Shown piece by piece: positions 7,080 to 51,345 of a DNA stretch of 64,000 nucleotides. The notes beneath the pieces were generated by a model that was given only the letters and a program-made list of their open reading frames with translations, was not told the origin of the DNA and did not search any database. The position numbers and the translations under genes were made by a program. The stretch is from Zea mays. Its lineage: Eukaryota > Streptophyta > Magnoliopsida > Poales > Poaceae. Each line of letters starts with the position of its first letter. The stretch's first letter is position 1. The stretch covers positions 293,830,200 to 293,894,199 of the forward strand of contig NC_050096.1 of NCBI RefSeq assembly GCF_902167145.1, given 5' to 3'.

Positions 7080-8557
7080 TGTCGACGTTTCGACCCCGGG
7101 GGTCCCTGGACCGACGAGTAAATTGTCGCCGCGTGTCCCAGCCCAGATGGGTCGGTGCGAGACGGAGCACGAAGGGGGGAGAAAAGGAGACAGGCAAAAG
7201 GGGAAACCCGCGGCCTTCGTGTTGTCCTGCGCCCAGGTCGGGTGCGCTTGCAGTAGGGAGTTACAAGCGTCCGCGTGGGAGAGAGCGAGAGCCTTATACG
7301 CGCCGACCCATTCTCCCGTGCGGCCAACCTTCCCGTACAAGAGCCCTGGACCTTCCTTTTATAGGCGTAAGGAGAGGGCCCAGGTGTACAATGGGAGATG
7401 TAGTAGTGTGCTAACGTGTCTAGCAGAGAGGAGCTAGAGCCCTAAGTACATGCCGTCGTGGCAGCCAGAGAGGTTTTTGGTACCCTGTTCATGTGATGTC
7501 GTGGCCGTCGGAGGAGCGCTGGAGCCTTGCGGAAGGACAGCTGTCGGGGTTGTCGAGTCCTTGCTGACGTCTCCTTGCTTCCGTAAGGGGCTGAGAGCCG
7601 CCGTCGTCATGGAGCACGCGGGGCGCCATCATTATTTGTTTACCGGGGCGAGCCAGATGGGACGCCGGTCTTATCCCCCGTAGCCTGAGCGAGCTAGGGG
7701 TAGGGTAATGATGGCCCCTCCTGTGACGTGGTCGGTCCGAGCACTGGGTCGGGCGAGGCGGAGGCTCCTCCGAGGTCGAGGTCGAGTCTGTCTTCCGAGG
7801 TCGAGTCTGAGCCCCGGGTCGGGCGAGGCGGAGACCGTCGTCCGAGGCCAAGGCTGAGTCCAAGCCCTGGGCTCGGGCGAGCCCGAGTTCGTTGTCTTCC
7901 AGAGCCGAGGCTGAGTCCGAGCCCTGGGGTCGGGCGAGGCGGAGTTCGTCGTCTTCCGAGGCCGAGGCTGAGTCCGAGCCCTAGGGTCGGGCGAGGCGGA
8001 GTTCGTCGTCTTCCGGGGCCGAGGCTGAGTCCGAGCCCTGGGGTCGGGCGAGGCAAAGCTTCCTATGGCGCCCAAGGCCGGACTTGGCTGCTGTCAGCCT
8101 CACTCTGTCGAGTGGCACAGCAGTCGGAGCGACGCAGACGGCGCTGTCTTCTTGTCAGGTCGGTCAGTGGAGCGGCGAAGTGACTGCGGTCACTTCGGCT
8201 CTGTCGACTGAAGAGCGCTCGTCAGGATAAGGTGTCAGGCGATCCTTGCATTAAATGCTCCTGCGATACGGTCGGTCGGCGTGGCGATCTGGCCAAGGTT
8301 GCTTCTCGGTGAAGACTGGACCTCGGGCGAGCCGAAGGTGTGTCCGTTGCTTGAGGGGGCCCTCGGGCGAGGCGTGAATCCTCCGGGGTCGGCTGCCCTT
8401 GCCCGAGGCTGGGCTCGGGCGAGGCGAGATCGTGTCCCTTGAGTGGACTAAGCCTTGACCTTAATCGCACCCATCAGGCCTTTGCAGCTTTGTGCTGATG
8501 GGGGTCACCAGCTGAGATTAGGAGTCTTGGGGGTACCCCTAATTATGGTCCCCGACA
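7080..8557 (-). repeat. 3' LTR of Gypsy element A
   Basis: It begins tgtcgacgtttcg on the plus strand and ends ggtccccgaca; on the coding strand it starts TGTCGGGGACC. Between about 7795 and 8060 it holds tandem 57-base-type units (gagtccgagccctgggg core). It is 65 bases shorter than the 5' LTR (1478 against 1543), mainly from repeat-unit number. Plus-strand ORFs across these repeats are compositional. Confidence 0.9.
7357..7363 (-). promoter_or_regulatory. TATA box in 3' LTR of element A
   Basis: The complement of ttttata gives TATAAAA, preceded by cttacgcc and followed by a GGAAGG leader. The same box is at 27118-27124 in the other LTR. Confidence 0.55.
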
Positions 8558-8571
8558 GTAGCCCCCGAGCC
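8558..8571 (-). promoter_or_regulatory. Polypurine tract of Gypsy element A
   Basis: On the coding strand GGCTCGGGGGCTAC abuts the 3' LTR start. This is the position of the primer for plus-strand DNA synthesis. The identical tract lies at 49532-49545 in element B. Confidence 0.75.
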
Positions 8572-9284
8572 TCGAAGGGAGTGTTGATACTCGCTTGGAG
8601 GCTTTTGTCGCACTTTTTTGCAAGGGGACCGGCCTTTCTCGATTGCATTTCGTTCCGGTGGGTGCGCGCGAGCGCACCAGCCGGGTGTAGCCCCCGAGGC
8701 CTCGGAGGAGTGGTTTGACTCCTTCGAGGTCTTAGCGCGTTTCATGATGCTTCGGCCGGTCTGGTTGTTCCCTCATGCGAACTGGTCGTAGCCCGGGTGC
8801 ACAGTCGAGTCCCAAGTTCTCGGGCTGGTATGTTGATGCTGTCAACGGTTCGGCCGGAGCCGGGTTTGCGAGAGCAGCCCCCGAGCCTCCGCACAGAGCG
8901 AGAGGACGGTCAAGGACAGACTCGGCTTTTTACATACGCCCCTGCGTCGCCTTTCCGCAAGGAGGAGGGAGGGGAAAGCGCCATGCTGCCCTCGGAGGGT
9001 GCCGAACATGGTGTCTCCAGTGAGTTGCTAACGAGTAATCCAAGTGGACGCCCGTGCCCCATTCGTTAGGGTCAGCTAGTGGCCCGGAGGCGCGCTCCAA
9101 AAGTACCTGCGGGTGATTTGCCGGACCCGGTCCCCTTTTGACGGGGTCCGAGGGCTCGATGCCTCCCTCTGGTGGGATTCCGTTACAAAATCGTTCCCAT
9201 CGGTCTCGAAAATGTACTAGGGTACCTCGGGAGCGTAGCCCGAGCCTTGGTTATGTATCGAACGTACCCAGGGTCATCCCTCGC

Positions 9285-9510
9285 TCTGCGTCTGAGGCGG
9301 CTGTCGAACCCTTCGGGGGCCAGCCTACGAACCCCTGATCAGTAGTGGGAGCGGAGCCCGAGTGGCCTGAGGCGGCCGTTGAACCCTTCCGAGGGGGCAG
9401 CCTTCGAACCTCTGACCAGTAGTGGGCGCGGAGCCCGAGTGCTCTGAGGCGGCTGTTGAACCCTTCCGAGGGGCCAGCCTCCGAACCTCTGATCAGTAGG
9501 GGGGCTCGGG
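9285..9510. repeat. Three tandem units of about 75 bases
   Basis: Each unit contains ctgaggcgg, gaacccttc, a G-run, ccagcct, cgaacc, ctgatcagtagtggg and gagcccgag. The corresponding array in element B is at 50250-50460. Confidence 0.7.
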
Positions 9511-9842
9511 GCCCGCTTCCTTCGCGGAGAAGAATCCCTTTCGGAGTATCCCCTTTCCCGGTCCCTGTAGCAAGAGAGAGAAAGAGGAAGTGGAAAAGGA
9601 TATGAAATCGAACGACGTGGCGCACCTTTTTTGACACGGTCATCATGGCGGAGGTGAAGCGTCGCCTGCTTCGCCTGCCAAAGGTGCCGCCTGTCCTGCC
9701 GCAGAGTTAATACGACGGGACGAGTGGTTCGCGGGGCGGCCGTTGTGCGTGCGCGAGCCGTTCGAGGAACGGGCGTCTCGCTTTGAGTTTTGAATCTCGC
9801 GGCGGGTTCGGGCGAAGTGTTGAACGGGTCTCGCCTGGGCCT

Positions 9843-9850
9843 TTATATAT
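9843..9850 (+). promoter_or_regulatory. Antisense TATA box inside Gypsy element A
   Basis: The sequence tttatatatt stands out in GC-rich surroundings, on the strand opposite to gag-pol. It lies about 140 bases before the ATG at 9984. Element B has a similar cctttaaaagg box at a comparable place (51309). Promoter function is inferred. Confidence 0.45.
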
Positions 9851-9983
9851 TCGGGAAAGGGACCGGTGACAGTTCTTTACTCTGCTGCTCGCCTCCCACT
9901 TAGGTTTTCGCAACCCGAGGGAATAGCCAGAGAAAGGAAACCGCGCACCCAGTCCTCTCCGCCGCCACCTCTTCTGCTTGGTG

Positions 9984-10250
9984 ATGGCCAACCGGGTGAC
10001 CATTATTTCGCCGCGTGACCCATGGCCTTTCTCCATCGTCACGGCGGATGACCTGGAGGCCCTTGTTGATGATGGTTTGCTCCGTCCTCTCTCCGGTGTG
10101 GAGGTTGTTCATACCCGCGGGGGCGGAACCGGAGTTCCGTTTGTAATGGCACCTTGAATGCCGGTGTCTGTTCATTGTGGCTGTCGAGGCCTGAACATGT
10201 ATGTATTTTTTGGCACGGAGCCTGGTTTTTTCCTCATTTCGAGCACTAGG
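9984..10250 (+). pseudogene. Antisense ORF remnant, putative gypsy-type transposon protein N-terminus
   Basis: My own translation from 9984 gives 88 residues starting MANRVTIISPRDPWPF and continuing DDLEALVDDGLLRPLSG. This start resembles the N-terminus of the plant family annotated as putative gypsy type transposon (Transposase_28, PF04195), whose members I recall as antisense ORFs of Tat-like elements. After PLSG the reading changes to a short unrelated tail, so the body of the usually several-hundred-residue protein appears deleted. The assignment rests on memory of the family start and should be tested by a profile search. Confidence 0.45.
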
Positions 10251-10304
10251 ACTCGTCTGTCGGCTAACTGAACCGCTTAACCAAGTGTGAGTCGCCTCGT
10301 GCGA

Positions 10305-11232
10305 AGGTGACGAGTGAGGTATCCGTATCCCGGAGGCGTAGGAGTCCCTCGGCTCGGTCGGCCTTGCCGCCCGAGGCTTCTCTTGCTTAGTTAAAGGAAC
10401 CCTCGGCCGCTCTTCGATGAGCCAGAGCCGGAGGCAGCGGTGTCAGTGTGGACGGAGGCAGAGTTGGCTCGAAAAGAAGATTTTGTCGGCCGGAGCCTGG
10501 CCGAGCCATCCACTGGTGGGACCAGCGCCGGAGTCGAGTTGCCGAGGTCACGAGCCGGGCTGGTGTCCTCGGGGGACAGCTGGCTGAGGCTTCGGGGTGG
10601 CCGGCCGAGCCATCTGCTCGGGCCGGGTTCATGGAGATGACCCTGGCGGCGATGACCCGGGCGCGGTGCTGACGTCGTCCTTCGGAGCGGAGATCCTCCG
10701 ACCGTGTTGCCGTCCGAGGCTCGGTCGGACTTCGCCGAAGGTGGAGTTGACGTCGAGGGTGCTGCTGCTCCCCCTCCGTCAAGGTCCGAGCCTGCAGGAT
10801 CGGTTTATCTTGTAGTGTGCATATGTTTTTCGCGGCCGCCGAGGCCCAAACATACTGTCGTCGCATTGTAAAACTGTGTTTCTTTTCCTCTTGTTTCGAG
10901 TATCTGGACTTATTTGTCGGTAATAGAATTGTTTGTCCGAGCGAGAGTTACTTTTCACGGAAGGTGATGAGTGAGGTATCCGTATCCCAGAGGCGTAGGA
11001 GTCCCTCGGCTCGATCGGTCTTGCCGCTTACGTGTACTCTTACTCGTCCGTAGGATTCTGCTATCGATTTAGTCGAGAAGGCACGAAAAATCGTTTCGTC
11101 AGAAGAGTTTTCGAGCATTAAGACTTGTTCGGTCAGCGGAATCGCTTATCCGAGCGTGAGTTACTTATCGCAGAAGGTGATGAGTGAGGTATCCGTATCC
11201 TGGAGGCGTAGGAGTTCCTCGGCTCGGTCAGC
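10305..11232. repeat. Three dispersed copies of a conserved block of about 60-110 bases
   Basis: Copies start near 10305, 10966 and 11171. Each has gagtgaggtatccgtatcc, then ggaggcgtaggag and cctcggctcg; two are preceded by a cgagcgagagttact-type stretch. The same three-copy layout is in element B at 52271, 52869 and 53088. Confidence 0.75.
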
Positions 11233-11460
11233 CTTGGCTGCTTACGTGTACTCCGTCGTTTTCAGGATCCCACTTTCGAAGTAGTCGAAAATCACGAAAG
11301 ACGTTCTGGCAGAAAGACCTTTTCCAAGGAAAATTTTGACGCAGAGGGGGTTCCCCCCTTCTAGCCCCCGAGGGAGGGTCGGGCTTTGCCGAGGCAAGGC
11401 TGACCCTTCCTTGATGAGACTTCGTATGTAAACGAGGTGTATGAACGGCTTGAAAACATC

Positions 11461-12899
11461 TTAAGGGTAGAAGCGACGTAGCTGTTGGATGTTCCAAGCG
11501 TTGCTGTAGACCTCGCCTTGACTGTTGGCCAGCTTGTTGTCCCGGGCTTCAGAACCTTGGCGATGACGAACGGCCCTTCCCAGGGAGGCGTGAGCTTGTG
11601 CTGCCCTCGGGCGTCTTGTCGCAGCCGAAGCACCAAGTCGCCCACCTGGAGGTCTCGGGACCGAACCCCTCGGGCGTGGTAGCGTCGCAGGGACTGCTGA
11701 TACCGCGCTGAGTGTAGTAAGGCCATGTCCCGAGCCTCTTCCAGCTGGTCCAGTGAGTCTTCTCGGTTGGTTCGATTGATTCGGTCGTCGTACGCCCTCG
11801 TCCTCGGGGAATCGTATTCTAAGTCTATGGGCAAGATGGCCTCGGCCCCATAGACTAGAAAGAACGGTGTGAAGCCCGTGGCTCGACTCGGCGTTGTCCT
11901 CAGGCTCCAGACCACCGAGGGGAGTTCCTTCATCCATCGCCTGCCGAACTTGTTGAGGTCGTTGTTGATCCGTGGCTTGAGCCCTTGCAGAATCATGCCG
12001 TTGGCACGTTCTACCTGCCCATTCGTCATGGGGTGAGCCACGGCGGCCCAGTCCACCCGGATGTGGTGATCCTCGCAGAAGTCCAGGAACTTTCTGCCGG
12101 TGAACTGGGTGTCGTTGTCGGTGATGATGGAGTTCAGGACCCCAAAGCGATGGATGATGTTGGTGAAGAACGCCACCGCCTGTTCGGACCTGATGCTGTT
12201 TAGGGGTCGGACCTTGATCCACTTGGAGAATTTGTCGATGGCGACCAGTAGGTGCGTGTAGCCCCCAGGTGCCTTCTGCAAGGGACCGACGAGGTCCAGG
12301 CCCCACACAGCAAACAGCCAGGTGATGGGTATTGTCTGCAGAGCCTGAGCGGGCAGGTGGGTCTGCCTTGCGTAGAATTGACACCCTTGGCAGGTGCGGA
12401 CAATTCTAGTGGCGTCGGCCACCGCGGTTGGCCAGTAGAAACCTTGTCGGAAAGCGTTTCCAACAAGGGCTCGAGGCGCTGCATGATGACAGCAAGCCCC
12501 CGAGTGTATTTCTTGTAAGAGCTCCTGGCCTTTGGCGATGGATATGCATCGCTGGAGGATGCCTGAGGGGCTACGGTGGTAGAGCTCCTTCCCGTCCCTC
12601 ACCAAGACGAATGACTTGGCGCGCCGCGTCAGTCGCCGAGCTTCGTCTCGGTCGAGGGGCAGCTCTCCTCGGTGGAGATATTGCAGGTACGGGGTCTGCC
12701 AGTCTCGATTAGGCGGGACCCCATTCCGCTCTTCCTCGACGCGCAGTGCCTCACCCTCGGGGGCCGAGGGTGCCTCGGGCTGAGCCAAGGACGCCTCGGG
12801 CTGGGTCGAGGCCTTCTTGGGCTCGGGCGTGTCGTCGGTCTTGACTGAGGGTTGATGTAGGTCTCGGGAGAAGACATCCGGGGGAACCGTTGTCCGCCC
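11461..12899 (-). pseudogene. Integrase of Gypsy element A
   Basis: The open part 11361-12788 contains a zinc-binding H2C2 region (IHSGACCHHAAPRALVG, then RTCQGCQFY), and the catalytic core with WGLDLVGP, an IITDNDTQF aspartate and a QVERANG glutamate. The C-terminal region has VGDLVLRLRQDARGQHKL. Compared with element B, a one-base difference near 11540 shifts the frame, so the natural C-terminus ending in LRRFYP (stop at 11461) is read in another frame. A UAG at 12900-12902 separates it from RNase H. The enzyme would insert element DNA into the genome; this copy is broken. Confidence 0.85.
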
Positions 12900-13709
12900 C
12901 TAGGCTATCTTAGCCAGCTCGTCCGCAGTCTCGTTGTATCGTCGGGCGACGTGGTTGAGCTCGAGCCCGTAGAACTTGTCTTCCAGGCGTCGAACCTCGT
13001 CGCAGTAGGCTTCCATCTTCGGGTCGCGGTAGTGGGAGTTCTTCATGACTTGGTCGATGACAAGCTGCGAGTCACCGCGTGCGTCGAGGCGTCGGACCCC
13101 TAGCTTGATGGCGATGCGCAACCCGTTGACCAGAGCCTCATACTCAGCCACGTTGTTGGACGCCGGGAAATGGAGGCGCAACACGTAGCGGAGGTGCTTC
13201 CCGAGGGGCGAGATGAAGAGCAGGCCCGCGCCCGCCCCTGTTTTCATCAGCGACCCGTCGAAAAACATGGTCTAGAGTTCCGGTTGGATCGGAACTGCTG
13301 AAAGCTGGGTGTCGACCCATTCAGCCACAAAGTCCGCCAAGACTTGGGACTTGATGGCCTTCCGAGGGGCGAACGAGATTGTAACGCCCATGATTTCCAC
13401 CGCCCACTTAGCAATCCTACCCGAGGCCTCTCGGCACTGGATGATCTCCCCCAGGGGGAAGGATGACACCACAGTCACCGGATGAGACTCGAAGTAGTGT
13501 CACAACTTTCGCCGCGTCAGAATCACCGCATACAACAACTTCTGAATTTGGGGGTAGCGGATCTTGGTCTCGGACAGTACCTCACTGATGAAGTAGACCG
13601 GCCTCTAGATGGGCAATGCATGCCCTTCCCCTTGTCTCTCAACCACGATCGCGGCGCTGACCACCTGAGTGGTAGCGGCGACGTAGGTCAAGAGGGCTTC
13701 TCCGGCAGC
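12900..13709 (-). pseudogene. Dual RNase H region of Gypsy element A
   Basis: The C-terminal part of the RT-linked RNase H (VVSSFPLGEIIQCREASGR, 13272-13478) is followed by a second RNase H-like domain. That domain has MFFDGSL, NVAEYEAL, DARGDS and NETADELA motifs (12900-13268). Two UAG codons interrupt the single frame: 13272-13274 just before the second domain, and 12900-12902 after it. A 13-base G-run at 13710-13722 shifts the frame relative to RT. The two RNase H domains are the hallmark of the Tat lineage. Confidence 0.85.
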
Positions 13710-13722
13710 GGGGGGGGGGGGG

Positions 13723-14716
13723 CCACCAAGATGGGCGCATTCGTGAGGAGCGCCTTCAGGTTCCCGAGGGCTTCCTCGGCCTCGGGGGTCCAAGTGAAGC
13801 ACTCGGCCTTTCTTAAGAGGCGGTACAGAGGTAGGCCTCTTTCGCCGAGGCGCGAGATGAAACGGCTCAGAGCCGCAAGGCATCCCATGACCCTCTGTAC
13901 GCCTTTCAAGTCTTTGATGGGGCCCATGTTGGTGATGGCCACAATTTTCTTCGGGTTGGCCTCGATGCCCCGCTCGGAGACGATGAACCCCAAGAGCATG
14001 CCTCGGGGGACTCCGAAGACACACTTCTCGGGATTGAGTTTCATGCCTTTCGCCTTGAGACACCGGAATGTCGTTTCAAGGTCGGAGAGGAGGTTGGAGG
14101 CTTTCCTCGTCTTGACTATGATGTCATCGACGTAAGCCTCGACCGTTCGACCAATGTGCTCGCCAAACACGTGGTTCATGCACCTTTGGTATGTCTCACC
14201 CGCATTCCTCAAACCAAATGGCATAGTAACGTAGCAGTACATGCCAAAAGGTGTGATGAAAGAAGTCACGAGCTGGTCGGACTCTTTCATCCTGATTTGG
14301 TGATACCCTGAGTAGGCATCGAGGAAAGACAGGGTTTTGCACCCAGCAGTGGAATCCACGATTTGATCGATGCGAGGTAGAGGGTAGGGAACCTTCAGAC
14401 ATGCTTTGTTTAGACCAGTGTAGTCTACACACATCCGCCATTTCCCTCCTTTCTTTCTCACAAGCACAGGGTTGGCAAGCCATTCGGGATGGAATACCTC
14501 TTTGATGAACCCTGCAGCCATTAGCTTGTGGATCTCCTCGCCTATGGCTCTACGCTTTTCTTCGTCGAATCAGCACAGAGGCTGCTTCACGGGTCGGGAT
14601 CCAGCTTGGATATCCAGCGAGTGCTCGGCGACATCCCTCGGTATGCCAGGCATGTCCGAGGGACTCCACGCGAAAACTTCGGCGTTTGCGTGGAGAAAGT
14701 CGATGAGCACAACTTC
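13723..14716 (-). pseudogene. Reverse transcriptase of Gypsy element A
   Basis: The open stretch 13688-14521 carries FIKEVFHPEWLANPVLVRKK, WRMCVDYTGLNKAC, the SFLDAYSGYHQI block, MPFGLRNAGETYQR and the catalytic VEAYVDDIIVK. Upstream in the same frame lies the DVFAW-type start region, cut by a UGA at 14570-14572 where element B has an arginine codon. The frame ends at a G-run (13710-13722) that is absent from element B. It would copy RNA into DNA; here it is inactivated. Confidence 0.88.
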
Positions 14717-14849
14717 CTATTTGGGGTCAAGCTCGGAGCCAATCCGGATCTGCTTGGAGGCATCGTTGCTGGGGTCGAGAGGGACGGACTTAACCGTCTC
14801 TGCTGGCTCGAAGTTGTCGGCATGGCGCTTCACGTCTGGCGCCTCTTTG
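14717..14849 (-). pseudogene. C-terminal end of gag-protease polyprotein of element A, left of the Copia insertion
   Basis: On the minus strand this encodes the linker after protease, reading APDVKRHADNFEPAE and ending SELDPK followed by UAG at 14717-14719. Element B has the same DPK-UAG arrangement at 56672-56674. The rest of gag-protease lies beyond the Copia element at 23688-26779. Confidence 0.8.
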
Positions 14850-14854
14850 GAGAG

Positions 14855-16082
14855 TGAAAGGGAAATGTGCCCTTGGGCCATTTCTAAGTGTTTTGGTGAT
14901 TTAGTGTCCAACACAAGTGCCTAAGTGTCAAATGGTGGACAAAGTACAAATCAAGTAAAAAGGTATGTTTCTAGACTTAGTACATTGTTTTATGGACTGA
15001 TGTATTGTGTCTAAGTGCTGGAAACAGGAGAAATCAAATTGGAAAAGAGATGGCTTTGTTCAGCCAAAGTCTGCTCAGTCTGGGTGCACCGGACTGTCCG
15101 GTGGTGCACCGGACTGTGTCCGGTGCGCCAGGCTGGCTCAGGCGAACTTGCTGTTCTCGGGAAATAATTAACGGCGTACGGCTATAATTCACCGGACTAT
15201 CTGGTGTGCACCGGACTGTCCGGTGAGCCAATGGTCGGCCGGGCCAACGGTCGGCCGCGGAATCCGCGCGTGACACGTGGCAAGAGCCAACGGTCAGAAG
15301 GGGCACCGGACAGTGTCCGGTGCGCCAACGGCTCTCAAGTACCAACGGTTGGCTTCGCCAAATAAGGAAATAGATCCGCACCGGACAGTGTCCGGTGGTG
15401 CACCGGACTGTCCGGTGCGCCAGGCGACAGAAGGCAAGAATTGCCTTCCTGGAATGCATCCAACGGCTCCATCTGCCTTGGGGCTATAAAAGGGACCCCT
15501 AGGCGCATGGAGGCGTACACCAAGCATCCTTTGAGCATTGTTGATCACTCACACTCCATTCTTGCGCACTTGTTCGACATTCTTAGTGATTTGAGCTTCG
15601 TTCTAGTGTGAAACTTGTGATAGTCTCTTGAGCTCAAGTCTGGGTCTTGTGTGTGCGTATTTGCTGTGATCTTTGTGTCTTGTGTGAGTTGCTCATCCCT
15701 CCCTTACTCCGTGCTTCTTTGAGAACATCAAAGTGTAAGGGCGAGAGGCTCCAAGTTGTGGAGATTCCTCGCGAACGGGATAAAGAAAAGAAAAGCAAAA
15801 CTCCGTGGTATTCAAGTGGGTCTTTGGACCGCTTGAGAGGGGTTGATTGCAACCCTCGTCCGTTGGGATGCCACAACGTGGAAGTAGGCAAGTGTTGTAC
15901 TTGGCCGAACCACGGGATAAACCACTGTGTCCATCTGTGTTGATTCTCTTGTGGTTATTGTGATTCGCTAAGACTCTTCTCTAGCCACTTGGCATTACTG
16001 TGCTAACGCTTAACCAAGTTTTTGTGGCATTAAGTTCAAGTTTTACAGGATCACCTATTCACCCCCCCTCTAGGTGCTCTCA
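14855..16082 (+). repeat. 5' LTR of nested Copia element
   Basis: Length is 1228 bases, with several accggactgtccggtg palindromes, a TATA box at about 15483 (ctataaaagg) and a terminal CT-rich block. It is longer than the 3' LTR (1181). One difference near 15590-15640 is a stretch missing from the 3' LTR; another is a ggtcggccgggccaac duplication near 15235. Confidence 0.92.
15483..15491 (+). promoter_or_regulatory. TATA box of Copia LTR
   Basis: The sequence ctataaaaggg lies after the accggac repeats and before the leader. The same box is at about 23134 in the 3' LTR. Promoter role inferred from position. Confidence 0.6.
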
Positions 16083-16084
16083 AT

Positions 16085-16096
16085 TGGTATCAGAGC
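16085..16096 (+). promoter_or_regulatory. Primer-binding site (initiator Met tRNA)
   Basis: TGGTATCAGAGC, complementary to the 3' end of plant initiator methionine tRNA, starts two bases after the 5' LTR. This is the standard minus-strand primer site of plant Copia elements. Confidence 0.93.
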
Positions 16097-16132
16097 CGTT
16101 CTCTTCAAGAAAGGGACTAATCGCCCGAAGAG

Positions 16133-18510
16133 ATGGATCCTAAGGGAAAGGGGATTGTGATCAATGATAAGGAGAAGGAGTCCTTCGTCAACGAGCCTAA
16201 TGATGACAAGCCTACCGACTCAGGCTCGGGCCACAAACGCAAAGATGGGAAGAAGAAGATAAGGCGCATCAAGGAGATCGTCTACTACGACGACAACGAT
16301 GAGTCCACTTCTTCCCAAAAGGACAACGACGACAACGACTACGACAAAAGAAAGACAGTTAATTCGAACTTTTATTTCGATTACTCTCGTATTCCGCATA
16401 GCTCAAATGCACATTTGCTTTCCATCCCTCTTGGCAAACCTCCACACTTTGATGGAGAGGACTACGGATTTTGGAGTCACAAAATGCGTAGTCACCTGTT
16501 CTCTCTCCATCCAAGTATATGGGAGATTGTTGAGAATGGAATGAAATTTGATAGCTCGGATAGTCCTGTATTTATTAATGAACAGATTCATAAAAATGCA
16601 CAAGCTACTACTGTGTTGTTAGCCTCTTTGTGCAGGGACGAGTATCATAAGGTGAGCGGCTTGGACAATGCCAAGCAGATCTGGGACACCCTCAAGATCT
16701 CTCATGAGGGGAACGACGTCACCTTGCTCACCAAAATGGAGTTGGTAGAGGGCGAGCTCGGGAGATTTGCAATGATAAGGGGCGAGGAGCCAACCCAAAC
16801 ATACAACCGGCTCAAGACCCTCATCAACAAAATAAGGAGCTACGGAAGCACGCGATGGACGGACCACGATGTCGTTCGCCTAATGCTAAGGTCCTTTACC
16901 GTCCTTGATCCACATCTTGTGAATAATATTCGTGAGAATCCTAGGTACACGAAGATGACGCCCGAGGAGATCCTTGGAAAGTTCGTAAGCGGGCGAATGA
17001 TGATCAAGGAGGCGAGATATGTGGACGACGCGTTGAACGGTCCAATCCATGAGCCTCAACCCATTGCTCTCAAGGCATCAAGGAGCAAGGAGGCACTACC
17101 TAGCAAGGTAGCGCAAGTTGAGGCGGCCAGGCTCAATGATGAAGAGATGGCCCTCATCATCAAGCGCTTCAAGACGGTGCTAAAGGGACGCAAGGAGCAT
17201 CCCAAAAAGACCAAGACGAAGGGGAAGCGCTCATGCTTCAAATGTGGTAAGATTGGTCATTTTATCGCTAACTGTCCCGATAATGATAGTGACCAGGAAC
17301 AAGGGAACAAGAGGGAAAAGAAGAAGAATTACAAGAAGGCCAAGGGCGAGGCACACCTTGGAAAGGAGTGGGATTCAGATTGCTCCTCTTCCGACTCCGA
17401 CAATGAAGGACTCGCCGCCACCGCCTTCAACAAATCGGCCCTCTTCCCCAACGAGCATCACACTTGCCTCATGGCAAGGGAAAAGAAAGTAAGCGCTCGT
17501 AATACTAGTACTTATGCTTCTTCAAGTGAGGATGAGTCTAGTGATGATGAAATAGATTATTCATGTTTATTCAAGGGTTTAGATAGAACCAAAATTGATA
17601 AGATAAATGAATTGATTGATGCTTTAAATGATAAGAATAGATTATTAGAAAAGCAAGAGGACATTTTATATGAAGAGCATGATAAATTTGTTAGTGCGCA
17701 AAATTCTCTTGCTCTAGAAATTAAAAGGAATGAAATGCTTTCTTGTGAACTATCTACGTGTCATGAAACCATTTCTACTTTAAGAGGTGTTAATGATGAT
17801 TTAAATGCTAAACTAGAAGTAGCAAATAAATCTAACTCTTATGTAGAACATGTCATGATTTGCAATAGGGGTAAAGATTTCGATATTGAGGCTTGCAGTG
17901 AACACATAGCTTCTATTGCAAAGTTAAATGATGAAATGGCTAGTCTTAATGCCCAACTTAAGACTAGCAAAAGTGAATTTGATAAGCTAAATTTGCAAGG
18001 GATGCCTATACGATTGGTAGACACCCCTCAATTAAGGATGGACTTGGCTTCAAGAGGGAAGCCAAGAACTTAACAAGCCATAAGGCTCCCATTCCCGCCA
18101 AGGAAAAAGGGAAGGCCCCTATGGCTAGTAGTGCTAAAAAGAACCATGCCTTTATGTATCATGATAGGAGACATTCTAGAAATGTCTATAGAAGTTATGA
18201 TATTTTTGATTCATATGCTATGTTTGCTTCTAGTTCTTCCTATATGCATGATAGAGATATGTCTAGGAGAAATGTTGTTCATCATATGCCTAGGAGAAAT
18301 GGTGTTAATGTTCCTAGGAAAATTAATGAACCTTCTACAGTATATCATGCTTGCAATGCTTCATTTGCTATTTGTAGAAAGAATAAGAAGGTAATTGCTA
18401 AGAAGTTAGGGGCAAGATGCAAGGGAGATAGAACTTGCATTTGGGTCCCTAAAGCCATTGTGACTAACCTTGTAGGACCCAACAAGAGTTGGGTACCTAA
18501 AACCCAAGCC
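16133..18510 (+). pseudogene. Copia gag polyprotein
   Basis: The ORF from the ATG at 16133 gives 646 residues. An acidic and basic N-terminal tail is followed by a UBN2/Retrotran_gag-type region (PHFDGEDYGFWSHKM through LTKMELVEGEL), then a CCHC zinc knuckle (CFKCGKIGHFIANC, residues about 365-378) and a coiled C-terminal half. The frame is lost near 17990 at an A-run. The expected continuation (FKREAKNLTSHKAP, then ASSAKKNHAFMYHDRRH) is read in a different frame up to 18513. Gag would form the cytoplasmic particle that packages the RNA. The long gag with extended C-terminus is typical of the SIRE clade. Confidence 0.88.
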
Positions 18511-18514
18511 TAAA

Positions 18515-21202
18515 TTTGCCTTGCAGGTTTATGCATCCGGGGGTTCAAGCTAGATCATCGACAGCGGATGCACAAACCACATGACGGGGGAGAAGAAGAT
18601 GTTCACCTCCTACGTCAAGAACAAGGATCCCCAAGATTCAATCATATTCGGTGATGGGAACCAAGGCAAGGTGAAAGGCTTAGGCAGGATTGCAATCTCA
18701 AATGAGCACTCTATTTCTAATGTGTTTTTAGTTGAGTCACTTGGATATAATTTGTTATCTGTTAGTCAATTATGCAATATGGGATATAATTGTTTATTCA
18801 CAAATATAGATGTGTCTGTCTTTAGAAGGTGTGATGGTTCACTAGCTTTTAAGGGTGTACTAGACGGCAAACTTTATTTAGTTGATTTTGCAAAAGAGGA
18901 GGCCGGTCTAGATGCATGCTTAATTGCTAAGACTTGCATGGGCTGGTTGTGGCATCGCCGTTTAGCACATGTGGGGATGAAGAACCTTAACAAGCTTCTA
19001 AAGGGAGAACACGTGATAGGTTTAACTAACGTGCATTTTGAAAAAGATAGACCTTGTGCAGCTTGTCAAGCAGGTAAACAAGTGGGAGGAGTGCATCACA
19101 GCAAGAATGTGATGACAACATCAAGACCCCTGGAGCTGCTACATATGGACCTCTTCGGACCCGTCGCCTATCTAAGTATAGGAGGAAGTAAGTATGGTCT
19201 AGTTATTGTTGATGACTTTTCCCGCTTCACTTGGGTGTTCTTTTTGCAGGATAAGTCTAAAACCCAAGGAACCCTCAAGCGCTTCCTAAGGAGAGCTCAA
19301 AATGAGTTTGAGCTCAAGGTGAAGAAGATAAGGAGCGACAACGGGTCCGAGTTCAAGAACCTTCAAGTGGAGGAGTACCTTGAGGAGGAAGGGATCAAGC
19401 ACGAGTTCTCCGCTCCCTACACACCACAGCAAAATGGTGTGGTAGAGAGGAAGAACAGGACGCTAATTGACATGGCGAGGACGATGCTTGGAGAGTTCAA
19501 GACCCCCGAGCGCTTTTGGTCGGAAGCCGTGAACACGGCTTGCCACGCCATCAACCGGGTCTACCTTCATCGCCTCCTCAAGAAGACTTCGTATGAGCTA
19601 CTAACCGGTAACAAACCCAATGTTTCGTATTTCCGAGTTTTTGGGAGTAAATGCTACATTCTAGTGAAGAAGGGTAGAAATTCTAAATTTGCTCCCAAAG
19701 TTGTAGAAGGGTTTCTGCTAGGTTATGATTCAAATACAAAGGCGTATAGGGTCTTCAACAAATCATCGGGTTTGGTTGAAGTCTCTAGCGATGTTGTATT
19801 TGATGAGGCTAATGGCTCTCCAAGAGAGCAAGTTGTTGATCTTGATGATGTAGATGAAGAAGATGTTCCGACGGCCGCAATACGAACCATGGTGATTGGT
19901 GATGTGCGACCACAGGAACAAAAGAAGCAAGATCAACCTTCTTCCTCAACAATAGTGCATCCCCCAACTCAAGACGATGAACAGGAGGCGTGTGATCAAG
20001 GGGGAGCACAAAATGATCATGTGATGGAGGAAGAAGCACAACCGACACCTCCAACCCAAGTTCGAGCGACGATTCAAAGGGATCATCCCGTCGACCAGAT
20101 TTTGGGTGACATTAGCAAGGGAGTAACTACTCGGTCTCGATTAGTTAATTTTTGTGAGCATTACTCCTTTGTATCTTCTATTGAGCCTTTCAGGGTAGAG
20201 GAGGCCTTGCTAGATCCGGACTGGGTGTTGGCCATGCAAGAGAAGCTCAACAACTTCAAAAGGAATGAAGTTTGGACACTGGTGCCTCGTCCTAAGCAAA
20301 ATGTTGTGGGAACCAAGTGGGTGTTCCGCAACAAACACGACGAGCACGGGGTGGTGACAAGGAACAAGGCTCGACTTGTGGCAAAAGGTTATGCCCAAGT
20401 CGCAGGTTTGGACTTTGAGGAGACTTTTGCTCCTGTGGCTAGGCTAGAGTCCATTCGTATCTTGCTAGCATATGCCGCTCACCATTCTTTCAGGTTGTTC
20501 CAAATGGATGTGAAGAGCGCTTTCCTCAACGGGCCAATCAAGGAGGAGGTGTACGTAGAGCAAACCCCTGGCTTCGAGGATGAACGGTACCCCGACCACG
20601 TGTGTAAGCTCTCTAAGGCGCTCTATGGACTTAAGCAAGCCCCAAGAGCATGGTATGAATGCCTTAGAGACTTTTTAATTGCTAATGCTTTCAAGGTTGG
20701 GAAAGCCGATCCAACTCTCTTTACTAAGACTTGCGATGGTGATCTTTTTGTGTGCCAAATTTATGTCGATGACATAATATTTGGTTCCACTAACCAAAAG
20801 TCTTGTGAAGAGTTTAGCAGGGTGATGACACAGAAATTCGAGATGTCGATGATGGGCGAGTTGAACTACTTCCTTGGGTTCCAAGTGAAGCAACTCAAGG
20901 ACGGCACCTTCATCTCCCAAACGAAGTACACGCAAGACTTGCTAAAGCGGTTTGGGATGAAGGACGCCAAGCCCGCAAAGACTCCGATGGGGACCGATGG
21001 ACACACCGACCTCAACAAAGGAGGTAAGTCCGTTGATCAAAAGGCATACCGGTCAATGATAGGGTCTTTACTTTATTTATGTGCTAGTAGACCGGATATT
21101 ATGCTCAGCGTATGCATGTGTGCTAGATTTCAATCCGATCCTAAGGAGTGTCACTTAGTGGCGGTGAAGCGAATCTTTAGATATTTAGTCGCTACGCCTT
21201 GA
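18515..21202 (+). pseudogene. Copia pol: protease motif, integrase and reverse transcriptase
   Basis: The aspartic protease signature [12 protein letters not shown] starts at 18554 but is directly preceded by UAG at 18551-18553. The open part from 18581 gives 873 residues. It contains GAG-pre-integrase ([13 protein letters not shown]), the integrase core ([33 protein letters not shown]), then a Copia RT with [43 protein letters not shown] and catalytic [14 protein letters not shown] at 21200-21202 ends the frame before RNase H. The gag frame must change to reach pol near 18505. Integrase before RT identifies Copia. Confidence 0.9.
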
Positions 21203-21715
21203 TTCGGGATCTGGTATCCAAAGGGGTCTACTTTTGACTTGATTGGATATTCAGATTCCGACTATGCCGGATGTAAGGTCGATAGGAAGAGTACATCAGG
21301 GACGTGCCAATTCTTAGGAAGGTCCCTGGTGTCATGGAATTCTAAGAAACAAACTTCCGTTGCCCTATCCACCGCTGAGGCCGAGTACGTTGCCGCAGGA
21401 CAATGTTGCACGCAACTACTTTGGATGAGGCAAACCCTCAGGGACTTTGGCTACAATTTGAGCAAAGTCCCACTCCTATGTGATAATGAGAGTGCTATCC
21501 GCATGGCGGATAACCCTGTTGAATACAGCCGCACAAAGCACATAGACAACCGGCATCACTTTTTGAGAGACCACCAGCAAAAGGGAGATATCGAAGTGTT
21601 TCATGTTAGCACCGAGAACCAGCTAGCCGATATCTTTACCAAGCCTCTAGATGAGAAGACCTTTTGCAGGTTGCGTAGTGAGCTCAATGTCTTAGATTCG
21701 CGGAACCTGGATTGA
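21203..21715 (+). pseudogene. Copia RNase H
   Basis: This lies in the same frame as RT, after the UGA at 21200. It encodes GYSDSDYAGCKVDRKSTSG, SLVSWNSKKQTSVALSTAEA, LLCDNESAIRMADNP and HIDNRHHFLRDH, ending at 21715 after ADIFTKPLDE. Key acidic residues (DSDYAG aspartates, AEAEY glutamate, CDNESA aspartate) are present, so the domain itself is intact but cannot be made as part of the polyprotein without readthrough. Confidence 0.9.
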
Positions 21716-22490
21716 TTTATAGCATACATGTGTTTTATGCCTTGATCATGTTCCTTAAGCATTATGTTGTTTACTTATGGTGCTCAAGTTGTACAAGCAC
21801 TCCGCAGACCTCACAAGTCCATTTGCAAGTGATGCACACATTTAGGGGGAGATGTGTTACAACTTGACCCTTTGAGACTAACCATGTGCTTGAGTTTGCT
21901 TGATTTAGTCTCGAAGGAGGATTGAAAGGGAAAAGGTGAACTTGGACCATGCCAGACTTCCACTGCACTCCGATGAGAGGGTAACTTATTCCAAGTTCAT
22001 CTCTTATACTCTTATTGCCTTTTAGTCTTAGTTGAAGATTTTGGTGAGGCAATGGGGTTAAGGGGGCAAAATTGATCCCATTTTGGTGCTTGATGCCAAA
22101 GGGGGAGAAAATAAGGCCAAAGCAATAAATGGATCAGCTACCACTTGAGCATTTTTGAAAAAGTAGAGTTAGAGTTTTTGTTTGTCAAAATACTCTTGTT
22201 TGCATCTTATTGTCAAAAATTGTCTCTTGCGGGGAGAAGGCTTAATTATGGGAAAAGGGGGAGTTTTTGAATCCTTGATCAATTTCTCGTGAAATATCTC
22301 TCTTTATGTTTCAACATGTGTGTTTGACTTAGAGATAGGAAATTGAGTTTGATTTGCAAAAACAAACCAAGTGGTGGCAAAGAATGATCCATATATGCCA
22401 AATCTGATTCAAAACAAATTTGAGTTCTTATTTGAATTGATTTTGTACTTGTTCTACTTGCTTTATGTTGTGTTGGCATAAATCACCAAA
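21716..22490 (+). other. Copia 3' untranslated internal region
   Basis: No plausible ORF was found. The motif gggggaga recurs at about 21845, 22080, 22256 and 22493; only the last abuts the LTR. SIRE-clade relatives may carry an env-like ORF here, but none is present. Confidence 0.7.
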
Positions 22491-22501
22491 AAGGGGGAGA
22501 T
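22491..22501 (+). promoter_or_regulatory. Polypurine tract of Copia element
   Basis: AAGGGGGAGAT ends directly before the 3' LTR start TGAAAGGG. It primes plus-strand synthesis in LTR elements. Confidence 0.88.
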
Positions 22502-23682
22502 TGAAAGGGAAATGTGCCCTTGGGCCATTTCTAAGTGTTTTGGTGATTTAGTGTCCAACACAAGTGCCTAAGTGTCAAATGGTGGACAAAGTACAAATCA
22601 AGTAAAAAGGTATGTTTCTAGACTTAGTACATTGTTTTATGGACTGATGTATTGTGTCTAAGTGCTGGAAACAGGAGAAATCAAATTGGAAAAGAGATGG
22701 CTTTGTTCAGCCAAAGTCTGCTCAGTCTGGGTGCACCGGACTGTCCGGTGGTGCACCGGACAGTGTCCGGTGCGCCAGGCTGGCTCAGGCGAACTTGCTG
22801 TTCTTGGGAAATAATTAACGGCGTACGGCTATAATTCACCGGACTGTCCGGTGTGCACCGGACTGTCCGGTGAGCCAACGGTCGGCCGCGGAATCCGCGC
22901 GTGACACGTGGCAAGAGCCAACGGTCAGAAGGGGCACCGGACTGTCCGGTGTGCACCGAACAATGTCCGGTGCGCCAACGGCTCTCAAGTACCAACGGTT
23001 GGCTTTGCCAAATAAGGAAGGAGATCCGCACCAAACAGTGTCCGGTGGTGCACCGGACTGTCCGGTGCGCCAGGCGACAGAAGGCAAGAATTGCCTTCCT
23101 GGAATGCATCCAACGGCTCCTAGCTGCCTTGGGGCTATAAAAGGGACCCCTAGGCGCATGGAGGCGTACACCAAGCATCCTTTGAGCATTGTTGATCACT
23201 CACACTCCATTCTTGCGCACTTGTTCGACATTCTTAGTGATGGGTCTTGTGTGTGCGTATTTGCTGTGATCTTTGTGTCTTGTGTGAGTTGCTCATCCCT
23301 CCCTTACTCCGTGCTTCTTTGAGAACATCAAAGTGTAAGGGCGAGAGGCTCCAAGTTGTGGAGATTCCTCGCGAATGGGATAAAGAAAAGAAAAGCAAAA
23401 CTCCGTGGTATTCAAGTGGGTCTTTGGACCGCTTGAGAGGGGTTGATTGCAACCCTCGTCCGTTGGGACGCCACAACGCGGAAGTAGGCAAGTGTTGTAC
23501 TTGGCCGAACCACGGGATAAACCACTGTGTCCATTTGTGTTGATTCTCTTGTGGTTATTGTGATTCGCTAAGACTCTTCTCTAGCCACTTGGCATTACTG
23601 TGCTAACGCTTAACCAAGTTTTTGTGGCATTAAGTTCAAGTTTTACAGGATCACCTATTCACCCCCCCTCTAGGTGCTCTCA
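22502..23682 (+). repeat. 3' LTR of nested Copia element
   Basis: Length is 1181 bases, matching the 5' LTR except for scattered substitutions and two main length differences. It ends CTCTCA and is followed by gagag at 23683. Confidence 0.92.
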
Positions 23683-23687
23683 GAGAG

Positions 23688-26600
23688 GCTCTCCAGGTCG
23701 GTGATGAGGGCCTCGGCGTACTCCACGCACTCCACGTCGCATTCGTACGCGTGTTGGTACGTGGGGCCGACGGTGATGACCCCGTTGGGGCTTGACATCT
23801 TGAGTTTAAGGTAGGTGTAGTTGGGGACGGCCATGAACTTGGCGTAGCATGGCCTCTCCAGCACTGCGTGGTAGGTTCCTCGGAACCCGACCACCTCGAA
23901 CGTGAGGGTTTCCCTTCGGAAGTTGGAGGGAGTCCCGAAGCAGACGAGCAGATCGAGTTGCCCGAGGGGCTGGACGCGTTTCCCGGGGATGATCCCGTGA
24001 AAAGGCGCTGTGCCTGCCCGGACGTGGACAGATCGATCCGCAGGAGCCCGAGGGTCTCGGCATAGATGATGTTGAGGCTGCTGCCTCCGTCCATGAGGAC
24101 CTTGGTGAGCCTGACGTTGCCGATGATGGGTCGACAACGAGTGGATATTTCCCCGGGCTCGGCACGCGATCGGGGTGGTCGCCCTGGTCGAAGGTGATGG
24201 GCTTGTCGAACCAGTCTAGGTAGACTGGTGCCGCCACCTTTACCGAGCAGACCTCCCGACGCTCTTGTTTGCGGTGCCGAGCCGAGGCATTCGCCACCGG
24301 CCCGCCGTAGATCATGAAGCGGTCGTGGACCTCGGGAACTCCTCTGCCTTGTGATCCTCCTTCTTGTCGTTGTTGTGGGCCCTGCCACCCTCCGCAGGTG
24401 GCCCGGCCTTGTGAAAAAGTGGCGCCGAAGCATGACGCACTCCTCAAGGGTGTGCTTGACGGACCCCTGATGATAGGGGCACGGCTCCTTGAGCATCTTG
24501 TCGACGAGATTGGCACCTCTGGGAGGTTTCCGAGGGTTCTTGTACTCAGCGGCGGCGACAAGGTCCACGTCGGCGGCGTCGCGTTTCGCTTGCGACTTCT
24601 TCTTGCCTTTCTTCTTGGTGTCGCGCTGAGTGGACGCCTCGAGGACATCTTCCGGCTGGCGGCCCTGGGGCTGCTTGTCCTTCCGGAAGATGGCCTCAAC
24701 CGCCTCCTGGCCAGAGGCGAACTTGGTGGCGATGTCCATCAGCTCGCTCGCCCTGGTGGGGGTCTTGCGACCCAGCTTGCTCACCAGGTCGCGGCAGGTG
24801 GTGCCGGCGAGGAACGCGCCGATGACATCCGAGTCGGTGACGTTGGGCAGCTCGGTGCGCTGCTTCGAGAATCGCCGGATGTAGTCCCGGAGAGACTCTC
24901 CCGGCTGCTGGCGGCAGCTTCGGAGATCCCAAGAGTTCCCAGGGCGCACGTACGTGCCCTGGAAGTTGCTGGCGAAGGCTTGGACCAGGTCGTCCCAGTT
25001 GGAGATCTGCCCCGGAGGCAGGTGCTCCAGCCAGGCACGAGCGGTGTCGGAGAGGAACAGGGGGAGGTTGCGGATGATGAGGTTGTCATCGTCCGTTCCA
25101 CCCAGTTGGCAGGCCAGCCGGTAGTCCGCGAGCCACAGTTCCGGCCTCGTTTCCCCCGAGTACTTCGTGATAGTAGTCGGGGTTCGGAACCGGGTCGGGA
25201 ACGGCGCCCGTCGTATGGCCCGGCTGAAAGCCTGCGGACCGGGTGGTTCGGGCGAGGGACTCTGATCCTCCCCGCTGTCGTAGCGTCCCCCACGCCTGGG
25301 GTGGTAGCCTCGACGCACCTTCTCGTCGAGGTGGGCTCGACGGTTGCGGTGGTGGTGCTCGTTGCCGAGGCGCCCCGGGGCCGCAGGCGCTGTGTTGCGC
25401 GTGCGCCCGGTGTGGACCGAGGCTTCCCGCATGAATCGGGAAGTCGCGACGCGATGCTCCGAGGGGTACCCCTGCCTTCGGGAGGCAGAGCTTTCGGCCC
25501 GTCGGACCGCGGCATCCTCCAGGAGGTTCTTGAGCTCTCCCTGGATACGCCGCCCTTCGGTGGTTGATGGTTCCGGCATCGCACGGAGAAGTATTGCTGC
25601 TGCAGCCAGGTTCCGGCCGACCCCACTGGAAGCCGGTGGCGGCCTTGCCCTGACGTCGTCGGTAATGCGGAGCTGGATGCCCTGGGGCAGATGACGCGCT
25701 TCTCCGGCCGGAGCTCGGTCTGCCCATTCCTGCCCGATGTTCCGCCGGAACTACTCAAGTGTTCCTGCTCCCTCGTCAAGCCTGGCCTGCACCTCGTGGA
25801 TTTGCTCGAGCTGTGCGTCCTAACCCCCCGCATGGATTGGGACCACAGCTAGCTCCTGAAGGATGTCAACGCGAGGCGCAGGCCTAGGGGGATCGCCGTT
25901 TTTCGGCATACCAAGATGGTTGCCTTCGCCGGGACCCCCTAGATCGACGTGGAAACACTCACGACTTGGGCCGCAGTCCTCGTCGCCGAGGCTACGGCTA
26001 CCATCGGAACAATCGGAGAGGCAATAGTCGCATGCGGTCATGAAGTCCCGTATGGCACTAGGGTTAGCGAGCCCGGAGAAATCCCAACAAAAGTTGGGCT
26101 CGTCATCTTCCTCGGAACCCGAGGGTCCGTAGGTCGAGACGGCCGTTAGCCGGTCCCAGGGTGACCGCATATGATACCCCGGAGGGTTTGTATGTGCCTT
26201 TACGAAAGCGTCCACCGAAGCGGGGTCGCTCGGTGGGTCGCAGCTGGATCTAAAAGGCACGAGATGGGAACCGGTCGGTACCTCTTGGTCGACAGGCGGT
26301 GACGAAGTCGCGTCAGGGGCGGACTGCACCGTCGTCTCAGGTACGAGGGCGTCGCCTAGCAAGTCCTTCGCGAGCGTGCTGGCGTCGTTTGTCTGCTTGG
26401 AGTTGGCGCGTTGCGGGGAAACGGCGCTCGTCTTCGTCTCAGACGCGAGGTCGACGCCCGACGTGTCCCCCGTTGGGGCGCTGGCGCCGTCGACTCGCTC
26501 GACAGTCGACGAGGTGTCGCCTCCTGCTTGGCCATGGTTGCCCCGCCTCCTCCTCCGTCGGCGGGGAAGGTGACGGGACAAACCCGAATGTTGTTCTTCC

Positions 26601-26779
26601 ACCACGTGGGGAAGACGTCGTTGATTCCGCCGCCGGCGGGCGGGCTGTCGGCCGCCATTGTCGCTGTCGCACGACGGAGGAAGGAGTGTCATGTCGTAGC
26701 CGCCGTCGAGGGACATGAACTCAAGACTCCCGAAACGGAGCACCGTCCCGGGTTGGAAAGGTTGCTGGAGACTACCCAT
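23688..26779 (-). pseudogene. gag-protease polyprotein of Gypsy element A, right of the Copia insertion
   Basis: The ATG at 26779 starts MGSLQQPFQPGTVLRFG, the same start as element B. One frame holds 25820-26779, a UAG near 25820, a second UAG near 25755, then 24420-25579. The gag domain lies in that last stretch (TKYSGETRPELWLADY, LPPGQISNWDDLVQAF, RQQPGESLRDYIRRFSKQ) with a zinc-like CPYH-H-C block. Near 24415 a length change shifts the frame. The protease core (AETL region, FHGIIPGKRVQPLG, TFEVVGFRGTYHAVL) is readable at 23690-24137 in another frame. Breaks exclude an intact product. Confidence 0.88.
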
Positions 26780-26819
26780 TTGGAGCTTGACGGGAAGCTG
26801 TTCGTCAACACGCAGCAGG

Positions 26820-26837
26820 CCCCTACCTGGCGCGTCA
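26820..26837 (-). promoter_or_regulatory. Primer-binding site of Gypsy element A
   Basis: Two bases after the 5' LTR the coding strand reads TGACGCGCCAGGTAGGGG. Element B has TGGCGCGCCAGGTAGGGG, so this copy has one substitution in the TGG that pairs with the tRNA CCA end. The tRNA was not identified with certainty. Confidence 0.7.
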
Positions 26838-26839
26838 AC

Positions 26840-49531: not shown

Positions 49532-49545
49532 GTAGCCCCCGAGCC
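49532..49545 (-). promoter_or_regulatory. Polypurine tract of Gypsy element B
   Basis: GGCTCGGGGGCTAC on the coding strand directly precedes the 3' LTR start TGTCGGGG. Confidence 0.8.
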
Positions 49546-51316: not shown

Positions 51317-51345
51317 AGGAGGGAGACTCCTTTCGGAAGGCAACC

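What the first reader, a model, noticed from the sequence alone, without database searches (positions are those of the whole stretch)
14717..14719. The same in-frame UAG separates protease from RT in two different Gypsy copies
Seen directly: element A (14717-14719) and element B (56672-56674) both have CCC AAA TAG GAA on the coding strand, with the frame open into RT beyond. The copies differ in LTR sequence and age, so the stop is older than both insertions and has been propagated. Other Tat-type proteins, as I recall them, have glutamine here. A UAG at a glutamine position between gag-protease and pol is where retroviruses such as murine leukaemia virus use readthrough, though there it lies between gag and protease. 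It could set the gag-to-pol ratio in this plant family.
Basis: partly seen in the sequence, partly recalled or inferred. Interest (0 to 1): 0.75.

Follow-up and report, generated by a model that had tools for sequence, protein, structure and literature searches.

The report
Conserved leaky stop before reverse transcriptase
A family of plant jumping genes carries a stop signal in the middle of its one long gene, kept in place across distant relatives, which probably lets ribosomes make much shell protein and protease but only a little copying enzyme.

Summary
On the minus strand, both Ty3/gypsy copies carry CCC AAA TAG GAA between the protease region and RT (A 14717-14719, B 56672-56674). Downstream of the stop they differ by dS 0.44 with dN/dS about 0.10, so pol evolved as a working gene behind the UAG. 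In protein searches 70 of 120 listed gag-pro relatives end exactly at this codon, and in a search scoring only the RT side 31 of 35 informative metagenome ORFs begin just after it, 33 more being uninformative. Twenty relatives with a substituted sense residue there show only Q, L, K, Y, S or W, all one step from UAG, so these sense codons look like decay of UAG. Eight single-frame relatives, one of them a grass record, carry L, G, A or I, not glutamine. The context fits type III viral readthrough. Both copies predict a similar RNA fold 6 nt downstream, but controls make it weak evidence. Conclusion: probable programmed UAG readthrough making Gag-Pro and Gag-Pro-Pol; not measured. Readthrough is already cited as a candidate for rice RIRE2; the depth of conservation is the addition.

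The parts
56672..56674 (-). In-frame UAG of copy B, context CCC AAA UAG GAA
14717..14719 (-). In-frame UAG of copy A, same context
56675..60007 (-). Copy B gag-pro frame, 1111 codons stop to stop; the Met giving the 633-aa form common in relatives is at 58573; Retrotrans_gag in Pfam; protease assigned only by the motif MDGGS near 57232 (motif recalled, no Pfam hit)
56192..56671 (-). Copy B start of RT directly after the UAG (RVT_1, first part)
56189..56191 (-). Second in-frame stop in copy B, inside RT; copy A and the database relatives looked at have a sense codon here, so read as damage
54782..56188 (-). Copy B rest of RT and two RNase H-like domains (RT_RNaseH_2, RVT_3)
53383..54867 (-). 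Copy B integrase frame (Integrase_H2C2, rve)
56571..56669 (-). Predicted three-way RNA fold 3' of the UAG in copy B (core helix begins 6 nt after the UAG); weak evidence
14616..14714 (-). Similar predicted fold in copy A; 32 base pairs shared by the two predictions
13691..14716 (-). Copy A RT after the UAG, with an extra in-frame stop at 14570-14572
14855..23682 (+). Copia LTR element nested in copy A, flanked by GAGAG repeats; it separates A's gag-pro half (23683 upward) from its RT
47908..61718 (-). Whole span of element B, LTR to LTR, flanked by GTTCG repeats
   Evidence: ends and repeats read by eye
7080..28382 (-). Whole span of element A with its nested insert, flanked by ATTAT repeats
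   Evidence: ends and repeats read by eye

Best explanation
The UAG is a programmed readthrough site of a Tat-type (Retand-like) Ty3/gypsy retrotransposon lineage, by its relatives a lineage of grasses. Most ribosomes stop at it and release Gag-Pro. A minority insert an amino acid, helped by the AAA-UAG-G context and possibly by an RNA fold beginning 6 nt downstream, and go on to make Gag-Pro-RT-RNaseH-IN. The effect is an excess of shell protein and protease over replication enzymes. Shown here: the UAG in two copies, a stop at the same place in many relatives, selection on pol behind it. Inferred: UAG as the codon in the other relatives, that readthrough happens, the amino acid used, the role of the fold.
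For: Pol downstream of the UAG is under strong purifying selection between A and B: dS 0.441, dN 0.043, ratio 0.097 over 622 codons, although both lineages carry the stop. 70 of 120 listed gag-pro relatives (147 found) end exactly at the site, down to 39% identity to the query; 69 of the 70 have Lys last. Of 120 listed hits (1199 found) to a query spanning the site, 82 start within 3 codons after it, 12 end at it, 24 continue and 2 start further down; spanning proteins rank first in that list. In a search that scores only the RT side, 68 of 120 listed hits are metagenome ORF calls: 31 start just after the site, 4 continue, 33 are uninformative. The 20 substituted sense residues (Q8 L4 K3 Y3 S1 W1) are all one-step neighbours of UAG; tested on 19 of them, TAG explains 19, TAA 18, CAG 14, TGA 6 (the 20th, a Q, found). 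A protein motif (IGxxL ... LxxFLxxNxxxFAW) continues on both sides of the stop and is uninterrupted in single-frame relatives, so the fused product is what selection seems to see. Type III readthrough is described as UAG with a 3' G or purine-rich octamer and 3' RNA structure, and adenosines at -1 and -2 stimulate readthrough, in yeast (PMC3542737, passages); the site has A at -1 and -2 and G at +4. Both copies fold into a similar three-way structure, z -3.4 and -4.5 against dinucleotide shuffles.
Against: No readthrough was measured. DNA is in hand for two copies only; the other stops are inferred from where predicted proteins end or begin, and most of those proteins come from unnamed metagenome sources. 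The stop is not in every grass relative: a Lolium record reads through with Leu (P0272). The RNA fold is not outstanding: ten of 230 windows in B score lower and six of 124 in A; against codon-resampled controls 1 of 100 (B) and 5 of 100 (A) fold as well, and at least 8 of 109 windows in B and 3 of 30 in A do better. Of five A/B differences at positions paired in B's three-way fold, two keep the pair, three break it and none is compensatory. Low synonymous change in the first 35 codons (4 against a mean near 8) is matched by 10 of 86 windows, itself included. GAA after the UAG is not the tobamovirus hexamer CAR-YYA. Neither window copy is intact.
Confidence: 0.75

Rival explanations
1. The UAG is the 3' end of a short intron: the AG of UAG is a splice acceptor, and splicing joins gag-pro to RT, as the intron between PROT and RT does in Ogre elements.
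For: In Ogre the PROT-RT region is an intron spliced from a subset of transcripts (PMC6317226, passage). A maize database protein (P0002) joins ...FEPAET to EAVLVEF; set against copy B this equals, by my count, a 78-nt intron ending at the UAG. Rice and Digitaria models also lose residues here. TAG|G is an acceptable acceptor (recalled).
Against: The frame upstream of the UAG has no stop and keeps a conserved protein motif right up to it; dN/dS over the last 45 codons is 0.26, on only 9 synonymous and 9 nonsynonymous differences. Gaps in different gene models begin and end at different places and some would be only about 30-57 nt long by my count, as if gene finders were dodging a stop. I saw no common donor position in the proteins, by eye. 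No transcript was examined.
Confidence: 0.12
2. Pol is made by reinitiation or internal entry after the UAG, for instance at the AUG 22 codons downstream (DMP(G/D)IPRD).
For: An in-frame AUG is the 22nd codon after the stop in both copies, and some database ORF calls start there.
Against: The 21 codons between the UAG and that AUG encode a conserved stretch: 12 of the 21 residues are invariant in a four-sequence alignment, and the stretch belongs to a motif shared with single-frame relatives. Translation starting later would not protect it.
Confidence: 0.08
3. The stop is a dead mutation spread by a non-autonomous subfamily that borrows Pol from other elements.
For: Both window copies have further stops and A has frameshifts. 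Retand clusters lacking coding domains exist (PMC11963269, passages).
Against: dN/dS near 0.1 on pol behind the stop; a stop at the same codon in relatives only 39-57% identical to B in gag-pro; ORFs that start just after the site reach 1081-1084 aa with integrase (P0233, P0231), while no sense-residue ORF of the 20 extends more than 403 residues past the site.
Confidence: 0.04

Closest known systems
RIRE2 and other Retand-lineage (Tat) elements
   Same: Rice gag-pol records are 62-68% identical in RT to metagenome relative P0233. RIRE2 is cited as a plant readthrough candidate (PMC2754532, passage and reference list; the 1999 paper is not held and was not read). In a 2025 survey 59% of Retand clusters have gag and pol in one ORF and the rest in two, with 29% single for what the passage calls Liliaceae and 83% in eudicots (PMC11963269, passage).
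   Different: The passages seen do not say that the separator is an in-frame UAG at the protease/RT border, that it is conserved, or that a 3' fold may be present.
Type III viral UAG readthrough (gammaretroviruses, Tombusviridae, luteoviruses)
   Same: UAG, G at +4, A at -1 and -2, predicted RNA structure close downstream, polymerase made as an extension (PMC3542737, passages).
   Different: Here protease lies upstream of the stop; in murine leukaemia virus it lies downstream (recalled). The predicted fold is a three-way junction, not a pseudoknot; +5 and +6 are AA. Long-range pairing was not looked for.
Ogre elements (Tat clade)
   Different: Ogre has a spliced region averaging 274 bp between the ORFs; here there is one stop codon in a continuous coding frame.
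Sirevirus gag/pol arrangement
   Different: Copia, not gypsy; [quoted passage not shown]

Membership tests
Type III UAG readthrough signal | UAG stop with in-frame continuation | tested here: met
Type III UAG readthrough signal | 3'-adjacent G or purine-rich octamer | tested here: met
   G at +4 in both copies, then A, A, G; 6 (B) and 5 (A) purines of 8
Type III UAG readthrough signal | 3' RNA structure starting near 8 nt | tested here: inconclusive
   Predicted in both copies at 6 nt, z -3.4/-4.5, but other windows fold as well and no change between A and B is compensatory
Type III UAG readthrough signal | Measured readthrough product | not testable with these tools
   needs a reporter or ribosome profiling
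Tat clade / Retand lineage | Gag - protease - RT - RH - second RNase H - INT order | tested here: met
   Pfam: Retrotrans_gag, RVT_1, RT_RNaseH_2, RVT_3, Integrase_H2C2, rve in order; protease by motif only; reading RVT_3 as the second RNase H is mine
Tat clade / Retand lineage | Placement by RT phylogeny with labelled references | not tested
   No labelled reference tree was built; only closeness to maize, rice, Digitaria and Panicum records
Tat clade / Retand lineage | Antisense ORF with Transposase_28 between pol and 3' LTR (97% of clusters in PMC11963269; 23% of Retand elements in PMC6317226) | tested here: not met
   No Pfam match in 13 of the 17 + strand ORFs of 60 aa or more in that region of B. 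The element is therefore called Retand-like, not filed as Retand
Ogre-type PROT/RT intron | Spliced spacer between two separate ORFs | tested here: not met
   Frame is continuous apart from one UAG, with purifying selection on both sides; splicing itself was not testable

The most novel reading that the evidence does not exclude
A large set of Ty3/gypsy families of grasses has used a single UAG at the protease/RT border as a programmed readthrough switch since before those families split, with Lys-UAG-Glu and a 3' three-way RNA fold as its signal. It would be a widespread nuclear-encoded case of type III readthrough that plant gene annotation hides by inventing mini-introns.
Probability: 0.4. 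Interest if true: 0.65.

Novelty: new member of a known kind. Interest (0 to 1): 0.5.

Why it matters
How plant LTR retrotransposons with one frame balance Gag against Pol is, as far as I know, largely unsettled. A stop kept at one codon across divergent families, with pol under selection behind it, makes the question directly testable with a short reporter. As of 2009 all experimentally verified plant readthrough cases were viral (PMC2754532, passage). It also warns that database polyproteins for these elements appear to be spliced around the stop and may misstate the coding sequence.

Tried and rejected
Looked for more DNA copies and found none: viral contigs by RT piece, by DNA pattern and by P0163, genome contigs twice, plasmids by DNA (no match) and by protein (7 distant records under 60% identity, no use here). 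Rfam gave no match at 56400-56800. The PDB search only confirmed RT homology: 4 sequences, the best a reverse transcriptase/RNase H and the Ty3 polyprotein.

Rejected: glutamine as ancestral residue (codon-neighbour test; single-frame relatives). Rejected: chance recurrence of a random nonsense mutation. Downgraded: the RNA fold, since other windows fold as well and no compensatory change is seen.

Rows set aside: 27 of 147 hits, 1079 of 1199 and 4630 of 4750 were not listed by the tool and so not classified. In one search, 20 listed proteins lacked the tail, 24 aligned only up to a point before the site, 3 ended within 3 residues and 3 continued; none of these is counted as ending at the site. 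In one search my script put P0194 among those that end; one search showed that it continues with Q, and it is counted so here. P0215 ends at the site with T in place of K. P0002, P0127, P0136 and P0139 continue but have gaps at the site and give no residue. One search printed a wrong residue for P0135 (regex hit elsewhere); searches show Y. The motif pattern missed two records that run ungapped through the site, P0241 (I) and P0295 (G); one search shows them.

Full report
What is there. The window holds two Ty3/gypsy elements of one family on the minus strand. Element B runs 61718 to 47908 with GTTCG target repeats; its LTR pieces are 99.3-99.6% identical by BLAST, 98.3% in an alignment that includes flanks. 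Element A runs 28382 to 7080 with ATTAT target repeats, LTRs about 94-96% identical, and is split by a Copia element at 14855-23682 flanked by GAGAG. The A and B LTRs share about 78-80% identity. Pfam gives Retrotrans_gag upstream of the stop and RVT_1, RT_RNaseH_2, RVT_3, Integrase_H2C2 and rve downstream; protease is assigned only from the motif MDGGS, which I recall as the Tat-type active site.

The stop. Both copies read CCC AAA TAG GAA in the gag-pol frame, at 56672-56674 and 14717-14719. In B the frame is open for 1111 codons before it and 160 after it; in A the 45 codons up to the insert are open. Both copies are also damaged: B has a second in-frame stop at 56189-56191 and A one at 14570-14572 plus frameshifts.

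It is not a random lesion. Between A and B, pol downstream of the UAG has dS 0.441 and dN 0.043 (ratio 0.097, 622 codons); a gag-pro part has ratio 0.166 (498 codons); the 45 codons before the stop have 0.26. So both lineages seem to have spent most of their divergence as working elements with a UAG between protease and RT.

Breadth. A search with the gag-pro frame found 147 proteins, 120 listed. Of the 120, 70 end exactly at the site, 3 within 3 residues, 3 continue, 24 align only to a point before it and 20 lack the tail; 69 of the 70 end in Lys. Identity to the query among those ending there goes down to 39% (P0117). Linked at 70% identity the 70 fall into 5 groups, at 90% into 20. Because that query ends at the stop, I also searched with P0038, a natural protein that spans the site: 1199 found, 120 listed; 82 start within 3 codons after the site, 2 start further down, 12 end at it and 24 continue. 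Proteins that span the site rank first in that list. A third search scored only the RT side and so ranks both states alike: 4750 found, 120 listed. Among 68 metagenome ORF calls, 31 start within 3 codons after the site, 4 continue and 33 start too far down to tell.

Annotated plant records. Of 52 listed in that third search, 49 continue upstream, 1 starts just after the site (Panicum, P0266) and 2 start further down. A motif pattern found 5 that read ungapped through the site and by eye there are two more: Camelina I, Tasmannia A, three Tanacetum G, Lolium L, Daucus L. With the metagenome protein P0289 (L) that makes eight single-frame relatives, none with Q. Lolium is a grass, so the stop is not universal in grasses. 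Most of the rest are rice gag-pol models in which the stretch around the site is missing, with breakpoints that vary between models. I read this as gene finders avoiding a stop; I have no rice DNA to prove it.

Which stop. Proteins do not show the codon. But 20 listed ORFs have a plain substitution to a sense residue at the site: Q 8, L 4, K 3, Y 3, S 1, W 1. On the first 19, TAG is the only codon that reaches all in one step; TAA reaches 18, CAG 14, TGA 6. TAA is thus excluded only by the single W. Some of these proteins may share ancestry, so this is an argument from kinds as much as from counts. Two more have lost the stop by short in-frame gaps (P0127, P0136). None of the 20 extends more than 403 residues past the site, while ORFs that start just after it reach 1081-1084 residues with integrase; contig ends may have cut some of the 20. 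The sense codons look like decay of UAG.

Mechanism. A motif runs across the stop (IGxxLDPK | ExxLxxFLRxNxxxFAW) and matches an uninterrupted motif in single-frame relatives, which argues for a fused product. AAA-UAG-G meets the description of type III readthrough in Firth and Brierley 2012 (PMC3542737, passages): UAG, a 3' G or purine-rich octamer, 3' RNA structure, and a stimulatory effect, in yeast, of adenosines at -1 and -2. In both copies the RNA after the UAG is predicted to fold into a three-way junction whose core helix starts 6 nt downstream (z -3.4 and -4.5; 32 base pairs in common). Controls temper this. Sliding windows place it eleventh of 230 in B and seventh of 124 in A, third when the two copies are summed over 124 shared offsets. 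On codon-resampled controls 1 of 100 and 5 of 100 fold as well, and at least 8 of 109 windows in B and 3 of 30 in A do better. Synonymous change in the first 35 codons is low (4) but 10 of 86 windows, itself included, are as low. Of five A/B differences at positions paired in B's three-way fold, two keep the pair, three break it and none is compensatory.

Rivals. Splicing is the serious one, since Ogre, in the same clade, has an intron exactly here (PMC6317226, passage) and a maize record (P0002) can be read as a 78-nt intron ending at this UAG (my count). Against it stand the open, conserved frame up to the stop and the lack, by eye, of a common donor. Reinitiation at the AUG 22 codons down does not explain conservation of the codons between. 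A dead mutation is disfavoured by selection and depth.

Against what is known. A passage in PMC11963269 says that many Retand clusters, most of those it calls Liliaceae, have gag and pol in two ORFs; a passage in PMC2754532 cites RIRE2 of rice as a readthrough candidate and says that all verified plant cases were then viral. I did not read the RIRE2 paper or the 2003 survey by Gao and colleagues (not held). Retand membership is not established here: no labelled tree, and no antisense Transposase_28 in 13 of 17 ORFs scanned. The literature searches (capped listings) listed no paper whose title or shown abstract describes this UAG, its conservation or a 3' fold; that is not proof of absence. I therefore file it as a new member of a known kind, with the conservation, the UAG inference and the annotation artefact as the additions.

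Noticed in passing
14855-23682: A Copia element nested in element A has its pol frame (18554-21202, RVT_2, rve) ended by an in-frame TGA followed at once by 170 open codons in the same frame (21203-21715); could be damage or an arrangement worth checking in relatives.
   Followed up: partly
P0268-P0326 (database proteins): Rice gag-pol gene models drop varying short stretches around the stop position, some equivalent by my count to introns of only about 30-57 nt, so the deposited polyproteins seem to hide the stop.
   Followed up: partly
48654-49043 and 60727-61230; 7795-8054; 27559-27909: Tandem repeats of roughly 57 bp inside the LTRs of both elements; the array is longer in one LTR of B than in the other.
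   Followed up: no
32916-33461: Minus-strand fragment with Retrotrans_gag, about 33% identical to B's gag over 102 aa: a relic of another gypsy element.
   Followed up: no
2157-2708: Fragment matching Pfam Transposase_21 (tnp2; CACTA type, recalled).
   Followed up: no
56675-60007: B's gag-pro frame is open for 478 codons upstream of the Met that gives the common 633-aa form; relatives of 876-1055 aa that end at the same stop suggest that part may be coding too.
   Followed up: no
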